This document shows, piece by piece, positions 25,938-50,750 of a stretch of 64,000 nucleotides of DNA (the first letter of the stretch is position 1; every line of letters begins with the position of its first letter). Origin of the DNA: Dongshaea marina (lineage in GTDB: Bacteria > Pseudomonadota > Gammaproteobacteria > Enterobacterales > Aeromonadaceae); NCBI RefSeq assembly GCF_003072645.1, contig NZ_CP028897.1:2989658-3053657 (forward strand), read 5' to 3'. The notes beneath the pieces were generated by a model, which saw only the letters and a list, made by a program, of their open reading frames with translations, was not told the origin of the DNA and did no database searches. Position numbers and translations under genes: made by a program.

Positions 25938-26695
25938 TGGGTGAACTCAGTCATCAAGAGGAGCTTCGCTACAATCGGCAGATCGTGCTGCCCGAGTTTG
26001 GTTTTGAGGGGCAGCTCGCCCTCAAGCAAGCCAGAGTGCTGATCATCGGTGTCGGTGGATTAGGCTGCAGTGTCGCTCAATCCCTGGCCGCATCCGGGGT
26101 TGGCCAACTGACCCTGGTGGATTTTGATAAGGTTGAGCTTTCCAACCTGCAGCGACAAATCCTGCATCGTGAGGCGACTTTGGGACAGCTAAAAACCCTG
26201 TCGGCCCGCCAGGCGCTGGAGCAACTGAATCCCTGGCTCAAGATTAAGTGTATCGATAACAAGCTTGAGGGCCAGGAGCTGCTGGCTGAAGTCGCGCAGC
26301 ACAGTGTCGTGGTTGACTGCACCGATAATCAGCAAAGCCGGGAGGCCCTCAACCAGGCCTGCTTTACCAGCAGGACACCGCTGGTTTCGGGTTCGGCGAT
26401 TCGCAACGAAGGCCAGCTCATCACCTTTTGCTATGGGGAAGATGAACCCTGCTACCGCTGCCTGAGCCGCCTGTTCGGCTCCGTACCTGAAAGCTGTGTC
26501 GACAGAGGAGTGCTGGCACCCGTTGTGTCCATCATAGGCTCTCTACAGGCACTGGCCGTCATCAAACTACTGAGTCAGGTCGGGAGTATCACAGCGGGAC
26601 AGCTGCAGCTGTTTGACGGTCGTCAGGGAGGTTTTCGCGAGATGAAGCTTGCCAGGGATCCCGGCTGTGAAGTGTGCTCAGAGAAAAACAGATAG
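25937..26695 (+). CDS. moeB: Molybdopterin-synthase adenylyltransferase MoeB
   Basis: The 252-residue E1-like enzyme adenylates the C-terminal glycine of MoaD. The ATP-binding region GVGGLGCSVAQSLAASGVG (about 38-56), the DFDKVELSNLQRQILH motif, the VDCTDNQQSREALN loop and the structural zinc site CYRC ... CEVC near the C-terminus are all present. It overlaps moeA by one base. Downstream, the convergent CsrB-like RNA gene begins, and their ends share the GC hairpin at 26,701-26,722. Confidence 0.98.
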   Translation: MGELSHQEELRYNRQIVLPEFGFEGQLALKQARVLIIGVGGLGCSVAQSLAASGVGQLTLVDFDKVELSNLQRQILHREATLGQLKTLSARQALEQLNPWLKIKCIDNKLEGQELLAEVAQHSVVVDCTDNQQSREALNQACFTSRTPLVSGSAIRNEGQLITFCYGEDEPCYRCLSRLFGSVPESCVDRGVLAPVVSIIGSLQALAVIKLLSQVGSITAGQLQLFDGRQGGFREMKLARDPGCEVCSEKNR

Positions 26696-26696
26696 A

Positions 26697-26961
26697 GAAA
26701 AGGGGCGGCTTGCGCCGCCCCTCGGTCCTTGTCGCCCTATCCCTGAACGTTTATGCTCCCTGCGTTTCCTTACTCGTCCTCTTCCCTTAGGTTTCCTCTT
26801 CCCGATCCTTCGGGGGGTCCTTGCACCTTCCTGGTGTAACGGTCATCCTGTCCGCTCATCCATCTCCGACCCTGGAGGTGTCCATTACCACATCCTGTGG
26901 TGTTCCTTTTGCCTTACCCTGGCAGCCTTTCTATCCTGAAAGACCTCATTGCGTCCTTGCA
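26697..26961 (-). ncRNA. csrB: CsrB/CsrC-type sRNA (CsrA sponge)
   Basis: The minus strand contains 20 GGA triplets in about 240 nt. Many lie in hairpin loops: CCAC-AGGAT-GTGG, CACC-AGGA-AGGTG and CCCGA-AGGA-TCGGG. Others lie in single-stranded AAGGA/AGGGA segments between them. The RNA ends in a strong hairpin (GGGGCGGC-GCAA-GCCGCCCC) followed by TTTT. This architecture is that of CsrB/CsrC/RsmZ RNAs, which sequester the translational repressor CsrA. There is no good coding frame. At about 265 nt it is shorter than E. coli CsrB (369). The 5' end is inferred from the promoter. Its expected activator UvrY is encoded at 12,990-13,634. Confidence 0.9.
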
Positions 26962-26967
26962 CTAGTA

Positions 26968-26995
26968 ACTATAATCGCTCCCGATAAAAGAGCAA
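26968..26995 (-). promoter_or_regulatory. Promoter of the CsrB-like RNA
   Basis: On the minus strand TATAGT (-10) lies 16 bp from TTGCTC, a poor -35 as expected for an activator-dependent promoter. It puts the transcript start near 26,961, just before the first AAGGAC motif. Confidence 0.6.
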
Positions 26996-38284: not shown

Positions 38285-38361
38285 CGGCGTGTAGCGCAGC
38301 TTGGTAGCGCACTGTCATGGGGTGTCAGGGGTCGCTGGTTCGAATCCAGTCACGCCGACCA
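38285..38361 (+). tRNA. proL: tRNA-Pro(GGG)
   Basis: The 77-nt cloverleaf has acceptor CGGCGTG/CACGCCG, a GTAGCGCAGCTTGGTAGCGC D-arm, anticodon loop ATGGGGT (anticodon GGG), GGTTCGAATCC T-arm and encoded CCA. It corresponds to E. coli proL. Confidence 0.97.
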
Positions 38362-44320: not shown

Positions 44321-45685
44321 ATGAATGATCATCAAATGACCCCCACCGAACGGCGTGCAACCTGGGGGCTGGGCTCGGTATTTTCCCTGCGCATGCTCGG
44401 CATGTTCATGGTACTGCCGGTCCTGGCCACCTATGGTATGGCACTTCCCGGTGCTAATGAGACCCTGATCGGTATCGCCATCGGTGTCTACGGTCTGGCA
44501 CAAGCGATTTTCCAGATCCCCTTTGGCCTGCTTTCCGATCGTATCGGCCGCAAGCCTTTAATTGTCGGAGGTCTGCTAATTTTCGCCCTCGGTAGCCTGA
44601 TCGCCGCCATGAGCCACTCGATCTGGGGCATCATCATCGGTCGGGCCCTGCAAGGCTCCGGCGCCATTGCCGCAGCCGTGATGGCGTTGCTTTCCGATCT
44701 GACCCGGGAGCAGAACCGCACCAAGGCGATGGCCTGTATCGGCATCAGTTTTGGAATAACCTTTGCCATCGCCATGGTTCTGGGTCCTGTCATCACCCAT
44801 CTGCTTGGCCTGTCCGGGTTGTTTTACGGGATTGCGCTGTTCGCAGGCCTTGGGATCTTTGTCACCTTGGCGGTGGTTCCCTCTGCCAGCTCTCATCATC
44901 TCAACCGGGAATCGAGCATGGTGCGCGGCAGCTTTAAAAAGGTGCTCTCCAATCCTCGTCTGCTGAAGCTGAACTTTGGGATCCTCTGCCTGCATACCCT
45001 GCTGATGGCCTGTTTCGTCGCCCTGCCCCTGTGCCTTGAAAAATCCGGGTTGGTGCCTGGCAAGCAATGGATCGCTTATCTGTGCACCATGCTGATCGCC
45101 TTCGTGGCCGTGATCCCTGTGATCATCTATGCCGAGAAAAAACGGCGGATGAAGCGGGTGTTTGTGGGTTGTGTCACGCTCCTGCTGGTTGCGGAGCTGG
45201 TGTTCTGGCGCTCGGGCAGCCAGTTGTGGATGCTGATCCTGGGGCTACAGCTATTTTTCCTGGCCTTTAACCTGATGGAGGCGATCCTGCCGTCCCTTAT
45301 CAGCAAGGAATCTCCAGCGGGCTACAAGGGAACCGCCATGGGGGTCTATTCAACTAGCCAGTTTATCGGGGTGGCATTGGGAGGAAGTCTTGGGGGCTGG
45401 CTATTTAGCCTGGGGGGCGCAAACCTGATGTTTGTCGGCTGTGTGCTGGTGACCCTGTTGTGGCTTGGGATCAGCATCAGCATGAAGGAGCCACCCTATG
45501 TCAGCAGCCTTCGAATCACCCTGTCGCAACTGGCGGCTAAAGATAGTCTTCTGGAAAGTCAGCTGATGGCTCAGCCCGGGGTGCGTGAGGCGGTGATTGT
45601 CCCCGAAGAGCTCAGTGCCTATATCAAGGTCGATACGAAGCAGACCAACCGGAGTCAGCTTGAGGCGCTGGTCGCAGCTCAATAA
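44321..45685 (+). CDS. yajR: MFS transporter YajR
   Basis: The 454-residue protein has twelve predicted membrane helices, the MFS motif A LLSDRIGRKPLI after helix 2 and a soluble C-terminal domain of about 65 residues (VSSLRITLSQLAAKDSLLESQLMAQPGVREAVIV), a ferredoxin-like fold characteristic of YajR. E. coli YajR is also 454 residues and follows cyoABCDE, so both size and position agree. The physiological substrate is not established. Confidence 0.92.
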   Translation: MNDHQMTPTERRATWGLGSVFSLRMLGMFMVLPVLATYGMALPGANETLIGIAIGVYGLAQAIFQIPFGLLSDRIGRKPLIVGGLLIFALGSLIAAMSHSIWGIIIGRALQGSGAIAAAVMALLSDLTREQNRTKAMACIGISFGITFAIAMVLGPVITHLLGLSGLFYGIALFAGLGIFVTLAVVPSASSHHLNRESSMVRGSFKKVLSNPRLLKLNFGILCLHTLLMACFVALPLCLEKSGLVPGKQWIAYLCTMLIAFVAVIPVIIYAEKKRRMKRVFVGCVTLLLVAELVFWRSGSQLWMLILGLQLFFLAFNLMEAILPSLISKESPAGYKGTAMGVYSTSQFIGVALGGSLGGWLFSLGGANLMFVGCVLVTLLWLGISISMKEPPYVSSLRITLSQLAAKDSLLESQLMAQPGVREAVIVPEELSAYIKVDTKQTNRSQLEALVAAQ

Positions 45686-45739: not shown

Positions 45740-45849
45740 AAAAAAATGCGCTTAGAACGGCCGAACTAAGCGCGAATGTCAGGATTTGATTTCACTTGCG
45801 GTGATCAATTTCTGCTTGTTTTACAGAGATACATAGTGCATTGATGGAG
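45740..45849 (-). ncRNA. Candidate small RNA of about 110 nt with Fur-box-like promoter
   Basis: On the minus strand a hairpin (GCGCTTAG / CTAAGCGC, plus-strand 45,748-45,773) is followed by a seven-T run, a full intrinsic terminator, yet no minus-strand gene lies upstream to use it. About 90 bases upstream is a promoter with TATAAT. The resulting transcript (starting near GGTGACTCCATCAATGC) is of sRNA size and has no open frame with a ribosome site. It has no match to the recalled RyhB core, Spot 42, SgrS or FnrS. It lies between yajR and the divergently read TauE gene. Transcription is inferred from promoter and terminator only. Confidence 0.6.
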
Positions 45850-45855
45850 TCACCA

Positions 45856-45883
45856 ATTATACGCAAATGAAACTCATTTGCAA
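45856..45883 (-). promoter_or_regulatory. Promoter with Fur-box-like palindrome for the candidate sRNA
   Basis: TTGCAA and TATAAT are 16 bp apart on the minus strand. The spacer is occupied by the 19-bp palindrome GCAAATGA-N3-TCATTTGC (45,863-45,881), which matches about 13 of 19 positions of the Fur consensus as I recall it. Repression by iron-loaded Fur is an inference. Confidence 0.6.
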
Positions 45884-46024: not shown

Positions 46025-46816
46025 ATGTTGATCAGTATTCTTCTCTATATGCTGCTGGGCGCCGCTGCCGGGACCCTGGCGGGCCTGTTTGGCATCGGCG
46101 GAGGCCTGGTGATTATCCCGGTGCTCACCATCGCCTTTCAGCTACAGGGCTTTCCACCCGATATCTATATGCACCTGGCTATCGGCACCTCTCTGGCCAC
46201 CATAGTCTTCACCTCGTTAAGCTCTATCTGGGCCCATCACCAGCGTGGCGGGTTGGATTGGACCCTGATCCTGCAGTTGGGGGGAGGCATCATCATAGGT
46301 GCATTTCTCGGAGGACTCACCGCCAATGCGATCTCTGGTGGCGTTTTGGCTAAGATGTTTGGGGTCTTTGTCTACCTGATGGCGATTCAGATCGGTCTTG
46401 GGCTTAATTTTGGATCCGGCGGCAAGCTCCCCGGGCGAAAAGGTAAGTTTATCGCCGGAGGCATCATCGGCTGGGTATCGGCTCTTTTTGGGACCGGTGG
46501 AGGCAGCATGACGGTGCCCTATCTCAACTGGTGCCAGGTTCCGATCACCCGGGTGGTCTCCACCTCCGCAGCCTGTGGCTTCCCGATCGCTCTGTCCGGC
46601 TGTATCAGCTATATCCTCACCGGCTGGCACAACACGGCGCTGCCGGACTGGAGCCTGGGCTATGTCTACCTGCCCGCCTGGTTTGGCATCGTCCTGCTCA
46701 GCACTGTGTTCGCAAGATTCGGAGCCCGGCTTGCTCACACACTTCCGCCGGTTGTACTCAAGCGCAGTTTTGCGGTGCTGCTGCTGTGTGTCGGAACCCG
46801 GTTTGTATTCTTTTAA
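46025..46816 (+). CDS. TauE/SafE-family sulfite/organosulfonate exporter
   Basis: The 263-residue protein has about eight membrane helices and the two conserved loops of the family: GLFGIGGGLVIIPVL near the N-terminus and ALFGTGGGSMTVPYLNW in the second half. Family members move sulfite, sulfoacetate or other small anions. The gene stands alone before ffs; no sulfur-metabolism gene is adjacent, so the substrate is unknown. Confidence 0.85.
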   Translation: MLISILLYMLLGAAAGTLAGLFGIGGGLVIIPVLTIAFQLQGFPPDIYMHLAIGTSLATIVFTSLSSIWAHHQRGGLDWTLILQLGGGIIIGAFLGGLTANAISGGVLAKMFGVFVYLMAIQIGLGLNFGSGGKLPGRKGKFIAGGIIGWVSALFGTGGGSMTVPYLNWCQVPITRVVSTSAACGFPIALSGCISYILTGWHNTALPDWSLGYVYLPAWFGIVLLSTVFARFGARLAHTLPPVVLKRSFAVLLLCVGTRFVFF

Positions 46817-46919: not shown

Positions 46920-47033
46920 GGTGGCCTGGTAGGTCCTCTCGCATCAATAGCTGGTGAACCTGGTCAGGTCCGGAAGGAAGCAGCCACAGCGAGTGACTTG
47001 AGTGCCGAGATGTGGCTTGCAAGGCCGCCACCC
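46920..47033 (+). ncRNA. ffs: Signal recognition particle RNA (4.5S RNA)
   Basis: The conserved SRP apical sequence AGGTCCGGAAGGAAGCAGCC is intact, flanked by complementary arms (GGTGGCC...GGCCGCCACC) that close a hairpin of about 114 nt, the usual 4.5S size. A possible promoter (TTGCAT, 16 bp, TAGGAT) lies just upstream. With Ffh it directs membrane proteins to SecYEG. ffs is a recognised attachment site for Tn7-like elements, and such an element begins 12 bases downstream without damaging the gene. Confidence 0.97.
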
Positions 47034-47054
47034 AAATCCCCTCCTGTTTGTCGT

Positions 47055-47249
47055 TTGCACCAAAAGCTGACATATCTGTACCAGAAGCTGGCATAATTGA
47101 ACCAAAGCTGACAAATTTGCACCAGTTAGTGGCATAGCGTAATTAATTTACGTAATAAAACTACAACAACCTGCCTTTATTAATTTCCATTAATCTGATC
47201 ACTATCCCATATAAACAACCTGTTCAAATTTGCACCAGAACCTAACATA
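47055..47249 (+). repeat. Five TnsB-binding-site-like repeats at the transposon end
   Basis: Related 20-bp units start at 47,055, 47,076, 47,097, 47,117 and 47,230. The shared core is TTGCACCA-AGCTGACATA with small changes (for example CTGTACCAGAAGCTGGCATA). The first four are spaced 20-21 bp, two helical turns, as in Tn7-type ends; the fifth lies about 95 bp further in. Confidence 0.75.
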
Positions 47250-47295
47250 GAGTAACTTACGATCCCAGCTATGGGTGACAGTAAGGATACTCGTC

Positions 47296-47957
47296 ATGTA
47301 CCGCCGCAAACTCAAATACTCTCGGGTAAAGAACCTCTTTAAATTTGCCAGCATAAAATGCAAGGCATCACTGACTGTTGAATCAAGCCTTGAATTTGAT
47401 ACCTGCTTTCATCTCGAGTACTCCCCTAGTATTGCATACTTTGAGGCACAACCTGAGGGGTTTTACTATAACTTTGAAGGCAAAGCATGTGGTTACACCC
47501 CAGATTTCAAGTTAATCAATCATGACCAGCAAGTTTCCTACCTAGAGGTAAAACCATCCAGAAAAACGGCTCAGCAGGATTTTAGAAATCGATTCAAAAA
47601 AAGAGAGAGCAAGCCATCACCCTAGGCTCCTCGCTAAATTTGATCACTGAAAATCAGATAAGACTAAGCCCTCTTCTTGATAATTTAAAGCTCATTCATC
47701 GTTATGCAGGGTTCAATGGCATCACAGATAGACAGAGATCACTCTTAGAATTACTTACAGAGCATGGTCCACTAACAGTTCACTCCCTAATTGAAGAAAC
47801 CAAAATTTCTCAAGGTGAGTTAAATGCAGATCTTCTTAGCCTGATAGCACATCGAGAATTATTTACAAATGTTTCGGAAAATGATTTTAGCGAATTAAGT
47901 ATATATGGAGATGATCATGAACTCAGAAAAAAAATTAATCATGACTACATTTACTGA
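47296..47957 (+). pseudogene. tnsA: TnsA transposase endonuclease, one frameshift
   Basis: The first part (from ATG 47296, TAAGGA upstream; MYRRKLKYSRVKNLFKF) holds the catalytic domain: Glu in ESSLEFD, Asp in GYTPDFK and the EVK motif in YLEVKPSRKTAQQD, as in TnsA, which cuts the 5' ends of the transposon. The frame stops at 47,625. Adding one A to the A-run near 47,595 continues it as KREQAITLGSSLNLITENQI into a winged-helix C-terminal domain (QRSLLELLTEHGPLTVHSL) ending at 47,957. About 220 residues in total is the family size. It overlaps the tnsB start. Confidence 0.8.
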
Positions 47958-49728
47958 TGAGTTTGAAAAGATATCGCCTGAATGCGATATCAAATCTACT
48001 GACATAGAAAAATATGCAGAAATCAATTTGGATAACACTGCTATAACCGTAGCACGTGATCTTGACAGTTTTCCTGATGATCTAAAAGACGAAGCATTAG
48101 AAAGATACAAGCTACTATGCTTAATTCAAAAAGATCTTATCGGTGGATGGACAAGTAAAAACTTGGATCCGCTGATCGAAAAGTATGCACAACAAGTAAA
48201 CATCACAAAACCAAGCTGGAGAACAGTCGCCAGATGGTGGCAAAAGTATAAAACATCCGAAGGAGAAATAGTCTCACTTGTGACCCGAAATCATAAAAAA
48301 GGAAATAGTAAACTCAAGATTATCGGTGATGAGAAATTTTTTGACGAAGCATTAGAGGTGTTTTTAAGCGCGACAAGACCATCGGTAAGAAAAGCTTATG
48401 AGTATTATCATGATCGAATTGTATGTGAAAATGAAAATATTATCTCTGGAAAAATCCCGATAGTTAGTGAAAGAGCCTTTTACAAAAGAATTAACAATCT
48501 TCCCCCGTATCAAGTTGCACTAGCTCGACATGGAAAACATTTGGCAGACTGTTGGTATGACTATTATTCAGCTCATGAACCTCCAACCAGAGTTCTGCAG
48601 CGTGTGGAGATTGATCATACTCCAATAGACCTAATTCTTATTGATGATAACTTATTTGTTCCAATAGGAAGACCCTACCTTACTTTATTATATGATGTCT
48701 TTAGTAGTTGTATTATTGGCTTTCATATTAGCTTTCGGGCTCCAGGATACGAACCTGTAAGAAAAGCTATTCTTCATTCAATAAAGCCTAAGGATTATAT
48801 CAAGGATAAGTATCCTCAAGTGATTAAATCATGGCCATGCCAAGGGAAGATTGAAAATCTTAATTGTAGACAATGGTGCCGAATTTTGGTCAAAAAGTCT
48901 TGATCATGCTTGTATGGAAGTAGGTATAAACATCCAATATAATCCAATTAAAAAGCCATGGTTAAAGCCATTTATTGAGCGTTCATTTGGAAAAATTAAC
49001 AGCTCACTTATAATAAATATTCCAGGCAAGACATTTTCTAATATAGTTGAAAAAGAAGATTACAACCCACAAAAGAACGCCATTGTTAGATTCTCAACAT
49101 TCTTGGAGTTATTCCATAAATGGATTGTTGATATTTATCACCAAAACTCCGATTCGGTAAAAAAAGAATTCCCAACCTGCTGTGGAATATAGGTTACTCA
49201 TCACTTCCTCCAGCTATACCTAGTGAGTATATGATGAATAAACTAAATGTAGTTATGGGAATAAAAAAGTTGCTTCTCTTAGAAAAGGAGGAATAACAAT
49301 AAATCATTTACGTTATGATAGTGAAGAACTTAGTGATTACAGAAAACAATATATTCAAATGAAAAAATCAATTAAAATAATAATTAAAATAGACCCTGAC
49401 GACATATCAAGAATATATGTTCTTTTGGAAAAATTTGATAAGTATTTAGCAGTGCCATGTGTAGACCCTATAGGATATACCAAAAATCTCAGCCTAAATT
49501 ATCACCTGACATTGACAAAAGCTCACCGTGATTATATCAACTCAAAAATTGATATCGTAAGTCTTGCTAAAGCAAGGTTATGGCTCCATGAGAGGATTGA
49601 ATCTGAGCAAACAGAATTCAAATCAAAAGGAGGCAAAGAATACAAAACCTAGCCATTCTCATGATCTGTTGGACGAAATTGATCTTGAACAGTGGGATGA
49701 AATGGTCAAAGATATCGAGGGATTCTGA
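47917..49728 (+). pseudogene. tnsB: TnsB DDE transposase with about four frameshifts
   Basis: The start ATG 47917 has GGAG six bases before it, inside the end of tnsA. The pieces in order: an N-terminal DNA-binding region (SWRTVARWWQKYKTSEGEI), the DDE core with first Asp in RVEIDHTPIDLILID, second Asp in LIVDNGAEFWSKSLDHA and the Glu in KPFIERSFGKIN, then a C-terminal domain (IDPDDISRIYVLLEKF, VPCVDPIGYTKNLSLNYH), and an acidic tail (DEIDLEQWDEMVKDIEGF) that overlaps tnsC (TGATG). Breaks lie near 48,855, 49,165, 49,266 and 49,610; at least two are repaired by adding one A to an A-run. TnsB joins the 3' ends. Confidence 0.8.
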
Positions 49729-50750
49729 TGTTTAATTTAAATAAGCATATCGAAGATATTCGTGCATTTAAAGAGTGTACTATTGAATACCCTATGCTAA
49801 AAACAGTTATTAATGACTTTGACGAGCTAAGATTTAATTTTAAAATTGGTAACAATCAACAATGCATGATGCTTACAGGTGATACCGGTGCAGGAAAATC
49901 TCATCTGATACGTTACTATAAATCTAAAAATAACGAATATAATTCGAATCGAGGCATAACTATTCCTGTACTATTTAGCAGAATATCAGATAAGGGAACT
50001 CTAATTGCTACACTAGCTCAACTACTGAAAGATCTTGGGCAATTTAATACACCTTATAGGGAAAAATTAAGTAGCGATCTGTCATTAACAGAATCTCTGA
50101 TAAAGCTACTCGACAAATGCAAAACAGAGCTCATCATCATCAAAGAATTTCAGGAGTTGATAGAATTTAAATCAGTTAAGCAAAGGCAAGCTATTGGTAA
50201 TCGCCTAAAATACATTAGTGAAAAAACAGGGATCCCCATGGTTTTTTCTGGAATGCCATGGACAAAAAATATCATGGAAGATCCGCAATGGCGTTCAAGA
50301 ATAATTATCCATAGGAATCTTGAATATTTTAAACTGAGTGGAGAAACTTGCGGAGAAAGTAATTCACAGATATATATACAGTTACTAGCTTCATTAGAAG
50401 ATGAACTTCCAGTTAAAACAACCCCAAGTCTTAAGCAGCACGATATTGCATTTCCTTTATTCGCCATTTGCAAAGGCGAGTTCAGACAAATAAAATTATT
50501 CCTAGAAAAATCATTAATCCAAGCCTACCGAGATAATAAACAAGTTCTCGATAAAGAAACAATGAATAAAACTTATAAAAATATATATCCCGGTAAAACA
50601 TCTCCTTCTGACTTAGATATTAATAAACTTATCGTATGGCAATCCATTAGCGAGTCAGACTTTAACTGCAATGCAGAACATGAGTATGACAGTATGATTC
50701 CAACAATATTTGAAAAAACACCTTTAAGCCAAATTCTGAAGAAGAAATAG
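49728..50750 (+). CDS. tnsC: TnsC AAA+ transposition regulator
   Basis: The intact 340-residue ATPase has Walker A LTGDTGAGKSHLI (about residues 49-61), a Walker B-like TELIIIKEFQELI with Lys in place of the usual Asp, and sensor-like MVFSGMPWTKNIM. The size fits the short TnsC of I-F3/Tn6677-like elements rather than the 555-residue TnsC of canonical Tn7. TnsC links the targeting protein to TnsAB. It is translationally coupled to tnsB. No tniQ or tnsD follows directly. Confidence 0.85.
   Translation: MFNLNKHIEDIRAFKECTIEYPMLKTVINDFDELRFNFKIGNNQQCMMLTGDTGAGKSHLIRYYKSKNNEYNSNRGITIPVLFSRISDKGTLIATLAQLLKDLGQFNTPYREKLSSDLSLTESLIKLLDKCKTELIIIKEFQELIEFKSVKQRQAIGNRLKYISEKTGIPMVFSGMPWTKNIMEDPQWRSRIIIHRNLEYFKLSGETCGESNSQIYIQLLASLEDELPVKTTPSLKQHDIAFPLFAICKGEFRQIKLFLEKSLIQAYRDNKQVLDKETMNKTYKNIYPGKTSPSDLDINKLIVWQSISESDFNCNAEHEYDSMIPTIFEKTPLSQILKKK

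What the first reader, a model, noticed from the sequence alone, without database searches (positions are those of the whole stretch)
45740..45883. Orphan sRNA gene candidate under a Fur-box-like palindrome
A TATAAT promoter and a complete terminator lie about 110 nt apart on the minus strand between yajR and a TauE gene, with no coding frame. The spacer of the promoter is a 19-bp palindrome, GCAAATGA-N3-TCATTTGC, close to the Fur consensus. I see no RyhB core sequence. It might be an iron-responsive sRNA of a new family; its position after the heme-copper oxidase operon is suggestive.
Basis: partly seen in the sequence, partly recalled or inferred. Interest (0 to 1): 0.75.

Follow-up and report, generated by a model that had tools for sequence, protein, structure and literature searches.

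The report
Orphan small-RNA gene, iron-type promoter
Between two ordinary transporter genes lies a compact gene for a small untranslated RNA whose promoter carries an iron-repressor-like operator, in a bacterium without a recognisable copy of the usual iron-saving RNA RyhB, so it may be an independently evolved stand-in; no transcript has been shown yet.

Summary
On the minus strand a promoter (TTGCAA-N16-TATAAT), a perfect 8-3-8 palindrome over the -35/spacer and a strand-specific terminator delimit a ~111-nt unit without a coding frame. In 464 kb of this genome the same strict 'promoter + terminator, no ORF' scan finds two units: a tRNA gene and this one. It is not yajR's terminator: the T-run follows the hairpin on the minus strand only. 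No Rfam family matches; no homologue was found in 394 genomes of the order. With no second species of the genus at hand, conservation is untested. Fur control is plausible, not proven: the 13/19 consensus score lies within the 12-15 of true RyhB promoters of relatives, but 13/19 is common by chance and the genome has better boxes. The RyhB core is found in 59 of 60 genomes of two other genera of the family, not here. The unpaired 5' end is complementary over 8 bp to the sdhC ribosome-binding site, a modest lead; the whole-RNA duplex test was negative. Most likely a lineage-specific, probably Fur-repressed sRNA that works like RyhB without being RyhB.

The parts
45878..45883 (-). -35 hexamer TTGCAA
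   Evidence: 9 of 12 RyhB loci of relatives have TTGCA(A/C) shortly upstream of their Fur-like box
45863..45881 (.). operator-like palindrome GCAAATGA-GTT-TCATTTGC, Fur-like core ATGA-N3-TCAT
   Evidence: 100% complementary 8-nt arms; 13 of 19 to the recalled Fur consensus; identity of the regulator inferred
45856..45861 (-). -10 hexamer TATAAT
45740..45850 (-). predicted sRNA, ~111 nt; start inferred from the -10, not mapped; first 9 nt unpaired in the predicted fold
   Evidence: longest ATG frame 9 codons; no Rfam match
45843..45850 (-). ACTCCATC, putative seed, complementary to the sdhC Shine-Dalgarno stretch
   Evidence: suggestive only
45740..45773 (-). intrinsic terminator: 8-bp stem, 10-nt loop, A and seven T

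Best explanation
A free-standing gene for a ~111-nt trans-acting small RNA. A sigma-70 promoter is overlapped by a Fur-type operator: with iron, Fur would cover the -35 and spacer and block transcription; without iron the RNA is made and stops at its own terminator. Its exposed 5' end would then pair with ribosome-binding sites, sdhC being the best candidate, and spare iron as RyhB does. In a genome without recognisable RyhB it could fill that place without being related to RyhB. Shown: the anatomy and the lack of RyhB. Inferred: transcription, Fur as repressor, pairing, role. Layered estimates: real RNA gene 0.85; Fur-repressed 0.6; RyhB-like iron-sparing role 0.4.
For: Complete promoter-operator-terminator unit with no coding frame; one of only two orphan units in 464 kb, the other a tRNA gene. 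No minus-strand gene nearby that could need this terminator: yajR and TauE are both on +. AATGANNNTCATT sites are in excess in this genome, 16 against 2 for the reversed pattern. RyhB loci of relatives (12 of 12 read) carry boxes that score 12-15 of 19, here 13, and 9 of the 12 have the same TTGCA(A/C) upstream; one reads CAAATGAGAATCATT against CAAATGAGTTTCATT here. RyhB core found in 36 of 37 genomes of genus g4 and 23 of 23 of g2 but not in the own genome; Rfam RyhB over cut-off in 26 of 61 genomes, not in the own. nt 1-8 pair perfectly with the sdhC Shine-Dalgarno stretch; that 8-mer stands before a start codon in 2 of 402 genes of 464 kb.
Against: No transcript data. No homologue in 61 relatives or 394 genomes of the order, so no conservation. 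13/19 to the Fur consensus is common: 118 positions in 464 kb, shuffled consensuses 15-35 per 164 kb; on a double 7-1-7 model it gets 18 of 28, with 244 positions at least as good; eight other places in the genome are within 3 mismatches of the consensus, this one is 6 away. Duplex energy with sdhC is no better than for shuffled RNAs (z -0.15), and the seed match was seen afterwards; 179 of 5000 shuffled RNAs have an 8-bp match there. Two other genes among 138 have matches of 9 and 8 nt to nt 1-24, though at doubtful starts. The fold is not unusually stable.
Confidence: 0.42

Rival explanations
1. A real sRNA gene whose palindrome binds another regulator, such as Zur or an unidentified repressor, so that it answers to a different signal.
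For: The Fur match is weak by position-wise scores. A one-mismatch copy of the 17-bp core palindrome sits at the start of what reads as znuC in another genome of the order (L183; gene names by eye).
Against: That znu locus has a separate, longer palindrome nearby that looks like the usual Zur box (read by eye). The ATGA-N3-TCAT spacing is that of Fur, and RyhB promoters of relatives share it.
Confidence: 0.2
2. A Fur-repressed sRNA with a role other than sparing iron in iron proteins, for example on uptake, envelope or sulfur transport genes.
For: No statistically firm iron-protein target. The best duplex score among 57 starts is a glyoxalase-family gene (0 of 200 shuffles as good).
Against: The best 5'-end match at a convincing ribosome-binding site is sdhC; the glyoxalase-family hit is not significant after 57 tests.
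Confidence: 0.17
3. No functional RNA: a chance promoter and hairpin, or a decayed gene remnant, in a 340-bp gap.
For: No conservation shown; each part alone is common.
Against: The composite occurs twice in 464 kb and the other case is a tRNA gene; palindrome, -10 and terminator are all intact.
Confidence: 0.14
4. A RyhB gene moved and diverged beyond recognition.
For: Same kind of promoter as ryhB of relatives, with TTGCAA and a Fur-like box.
Against: No RyhB match for this stretch even at E<=10; no core within 3 mismatches anywhere in the genome; different place.
Confidence: 0.05
5. The hairpin is the terminator of yajR.
For: It lies about 60 nt after the yajR stop codon.
Against: In the yajR direction the hairpin is followed by GAATGTC, not by T; the T-run is on the minus strand.
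Confidence: 0.02

Closest known systems
RyhB (Rfam RF00057)
   Same: Free-standing sRNA gene; promoter with TTGCAA-like -35 and Fur-like box of similar consensus score; own terminator; possible sdh target (that RyhB acts on sdh is recalled).
   Different: No RyhB core, no match to the Rfam model, other genomic place, seed at the 5' end.
HrrF of Haemophilus influenzae
   Different: HrrF is proven by Northern blot and Fur pull-down, has three Fur boxes and is conserved in Pasteurellaceae (same passages); here one box, no experiment, no relative. The two sequences were not aligned directly.
PrrF, NrrF and other non-homologous iron sRNAs (recalled)
   Same: Functional analogues of RyhB without homology.
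   Different: Nothing but microRNA families and one staphylococcal sRNA, all far below cut-off, matched this stretch at E<=10.

Membership tests
RyhB (RF00057) | Match to the covariance model at its gathering score | tested here: not met
   Window scan, stretch at E<=10, whole own genome: 5 weak matches, best 25.1 bits against 55 required
RyhB (RF00057) | Conserved core GACATTGCTCACATTGCTTCC | tested here: not met
   None within 3 mismatches in the own genome; found in 60 of 75 genomes of the family
RyhB (RF00057) | Fur box in the promoter | tested here: inconclusive
   Score 13 of 19, RyhB loci of relatives 12-15, but common by chance
Fur-repressed sRNA (functional class) | Operator overlapping a sigma-70 promoter of a non-coding unit with its own terminator | tested here: met
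   that the operator binds Fur is not shown
Fur-repressed sRNA (functional class) | RNA induced by iron limitation or loss of fur | not testable with these tools
   needs Northern blot or RNA-seq
Fur-repressed sRNA (functional class) | Pairing with mRNAs of iron proteins | tested here: inconclusive
   sdhC: 8-bp match at nt 1-8, whole-RNA duplex z -0.15
Fur-repressed sRNA (functional class) | fur and hfq genes in the same genome | not tested
   no search was made for either
Any Rfam 15 family | Match at gathering score | tested here: not met
   six matches in the window, none in 45740-45883

The most novel reading that the evidence does not exclude
On this branch of the family RyhB was lost, and a non-homologous sRNA under the same kind of Fur-type promoter took over, with a 5'-terminal seed that blocks the sdhC ribosome-binding site: a convergent rebuilding of the iron-sparing circuit.
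Probability: 0.28. Interest if true: 0.65.

Novelty: new member of a known kind. Interest (0 to 1): 0.45.

Why it matters
RyhB is the standard iron-sparing RNA in this part of the Gammaproteobacteria, yet this genome has no recognisable copy. It offers one concrete candidate for a replacement and one concrete target, both easy to test. If true it would be, like HrrF, another case of the same circuit rebuilt from an unrelated RNA, and it raises the question of what the other genera of the family without a RyhB core use.

Tried and rejected
Synteny: one search printed the stretch after yajR correctly only for loci in plus orientation (own plus 8 relatives); for 8 reversed loci it printed the gene end instead. 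I repeated it with orientation handled: 29 of 29 relatives' stretches after yajR (L013-L041) and 19 of 19 stretches upstream of TauE homologues (L193-L211) hold no promoter + terminator unit and no AATGANNNTCATT, and blastn of the unit against them gives one chance hit of 17 nt, E 0.33. No TauE homologue lies within the yajR loci of relatives (which searched both strands).

Homology by DNA: 61 relatives, the plasmid collection (one 34-nt hit, E 0.1) and 394 genomes of the order (276 have something at E<=1, best outside the own genome 6e-4 per genome, as expected by chance over 394 searches).

Weak RyhB matches of the own genome (5 at E<=10) were read: the best lies inside an open frame, three of the rest end in ordinary terminators or lie in coding-like sequence without a Fur-like box; rejected by eye. 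Fur-like sites of genus g3 (18 stretches) showed no sRNA-like unit. RyhB loci of relatives share no genes with the window apart from one weak hit, E 8e-4. polA of the own genome, which would mark a second former ryhB place, is not in the stretches I held.

Target search: duplex energy over 57 starts put a glyoxalase-family gene first and did not support sdhC (z -0.15) nor the next two sdh genes (z -0.81, -0.60). The sdhC seed match was noticed by eye after that test. A second inverted repeat flanking the promoter (10 nt, 90%) was not pursued.

Full report
What is there. On the minus strand, 45883 to 45740, lie in order TTGCAA (-35), a 16-nt spacer, TATAAT (-10), about 77 nt of RNA body, and a hairpin GCGCTTAG-UUCGGCCGUU-CUAAGCGC followed by A and seven U. 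A perfect 8-3-8 palindrome, GCAAATGA-GTT-TCATTTGC (45881-45863), covers the last four bases of the -35 and most of the spacer. The longest ATG frame before the terminator has 9 codons. yajR (MFS_1 plus YajR_YAM) ends on + at 45685 and is convergent; a TauE-family gene starts on + at 46025 and is divergent. No minus-strand gene is there to need this terminator, and on + the hairpin is followed by GAATGTC, so it is not yajR's.

Is it more than chance. Each part alone is ordinary: 27 perfect 8-3-8 palindromes in 464 kb, six promoter-like hits in 3.5 kb with 2.7 expected, a fold only slightly better than shuffles (z -1.24). The combination is not. I scanned both strands of the window plus 20 stretches of 20 kb of the same genome (464 kb of 5.1 Mb) for a promoter of at least 10/12, a terminator 20-220 nt downstream and no overlapping ORF of 100 aa or more: two units came out, a tRNA gene (window 38285-38358) and this one. 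The scan is strict; it missed the window's CsrB and SRP RNA genes. Of 67 AATGANNNTCATT sites (59 distinct contexts) in loci L042-L056, L142-L171 and L214-L239, only this one is followed by a -10-like hexamer and a terminator.

Is it known. cmscan with all of Rfam 15 finds six RNA genes in the window, none here; at E<=10 only four microRNA families and one staphylococcal sRNA, far below their cut-offs. BLAST of the unit finds only the own genome among 394 genomes of the order; the best other match has E 6e-4 per genome, as chance gives over 394 searches. In 29 of 29 relatives' loci the stretch after yajR holds no such unit, and 19 of 19 TauE upstream stretches neither. The held set has no second species of the genus, so conservation is untested rather than refuted. 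The family contains Tolumonas (L016 equals the named L128). That g4 is Aeromonas and the own genus Dongshaea are guesses from genome sizes and numbers, not confirmed.

Is the operator a Fur box. For: the core ATGA-N3-TCAT has Fur's spacing (recalled); AATGANNNTCATT occurs at 16 places in this genome against 2 for the reversed pattern, one of them between what read as ExbB/TonB-like genes and a TonB-receptor-like gene (names by eye; 15 of the 16 places read). Twelve loci with genuine RyhB genes have boxes scoring 12 to 15 of 19 (best of about 120 positions each); this site scores 13 on its better strand. Nine of the twelve have TTGCA(A/C) shortly upstream, as here; one has CAAATGAGAATCATT against CAAATGAGTTTCATT here. 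Against: 118 positions in 464 kb reach exactly 13, shuffled consensuses 15 to 35 per 164 kb; on a double 7-1-7 model the site gets 18 of 28 with 244 positions at least as good, while the clearest boxes score 23-25; eight places in the genome lie within 3 mismatches of the consensus and this is not one. A one-mismatch copy of the core palindrome at the start of a znuC-like gene of another genome leaves zinc control open. I put Fur at 0.6.

The RyhB gap. Rfam's RyhB model is over cut-off in 26 of 61 genomes, not in the own; a laxer search of the own genome gives five matches, best 25.1 bits against 55 required. The 21-nt core within 3 mismatches is present in 36 of 37 genomes of g4 (the exception is 80% complete), 23 of 23 of g2, 0 of 3 of g5 (two of them 71% and 65% complete), 1 of 11 of g3 (three mismatches, probably chance) and not in the own genome. 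ryhB follows yhhQ directly in L240 (g4) and L241 (g2) and about 0.9 kb away in G034 (g2); polA, recognised by eye, follows in L003 and L009. The own genome has no yhhQ at E<=1e-10; in the six g3 and one g5 genomes read, yhhQ is present but the 420 nt after it hold no RyhB core. So RyhB was lost, or was never there, on the branch of this genome.

What it may do. The first nine nucleotides of the predicted RNA are unpaired in the predicted fold. sdhC was chosen beforehand as the classical target of RyhB-type RNAs (recalled) and found with PF01127. The whole-RNA duplex energy at its start is no better than for shuffled RNAs (z -0.15, 84 of 200 as good). Its ribosome-binding stretch, CTCTCGATGGAGTGAATATTCGTG, is however perfectly complementary to nt 1-8, ACUCCAUC. 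Of 5000 shuffled RNA bodies 179 have an 8-bp match somewhere in that region. Among 138 genes tried with up to six starts each, two others match nt 1-24 over 9 and 8 nt, at starts that look wrong. The exact 8-mer stands before a start codon in 2 of 402 genes of 464 kb, sdhC being one; the stretch with sdhC had been included on purpose. Co-folding gives -52.1 kcal/mol against -22.5 and -22.1 apart. This is a lead with a modest p-value, seen after a negative test, and it depends on the inferred start site.

Verdict. A real small-RNA gene is likely (0.85), Fur control plausible (0.6), an iron-sparing role in place of RyhB possible (0.4). It would work like RyhB but is not a member of the RyhB family: both sequence features tested were not met. 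[quoted passage not shown] that Shewanella has both Fur and RyhB is from passages of PMC8891985. Paper searches: 'Dongshaea' 3 papers, 'RyhB'+'Aeromonas'+'Fur' 38 papers of which 12 listed, 'Fur-regulated small RNA' or 'HrrF' 113 of which 12 listed, 'RyhB'+'PrrF'+'NrrF'+'functional homolog' 1, 'Tolumonas'+'RyhB' 1. Apart from the two papers named I saw listings only; none of the listed titles concerns this RNA.

Noticed in passing
window 46928-50750: Just after the small SRP RNA gene (46928-47024) lie a TnsA-N-like frame (E 1.3e-5, just under its cut-off), a TniB/TnsC-like AAA protein (E 2e-22) and, between them, two frames of which one has a weak integrase-core hit: a Tn7-like element beside the SRP RNA gene, its transposase apparently split over two frames.
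   Followed up: partly
family genera g3 and g5 (L243-L249): Genera g3 (10 of 11 genomes) and g5 (3 of 3) also lack the RyhB core although yhhQ, the neighbour of ryhB in g2 and g4, is present where looked; what they use instead is open.
   Followed up: partly
own genome C1:1802454-1802472 (L047, L215): A long inverted repeat, CAGGGCTTGCAATGATAATGAGAGTCATTATCATTGCAAGCCCTG, around a strong Fur-like site (2 mismatches to consensus).
   Followed up: no
window 26691-26981, minus strand: A CsrB-family RNA (84.9 bits against 71 required).
   Followed up: no
L244-L249, between yhhQ and polA: A well-conserved stretch around CCACATTGACATAAATCATnTTTCTTGTTAATTC, promoter-like, in all six g3 loci read.
   Followed up: no
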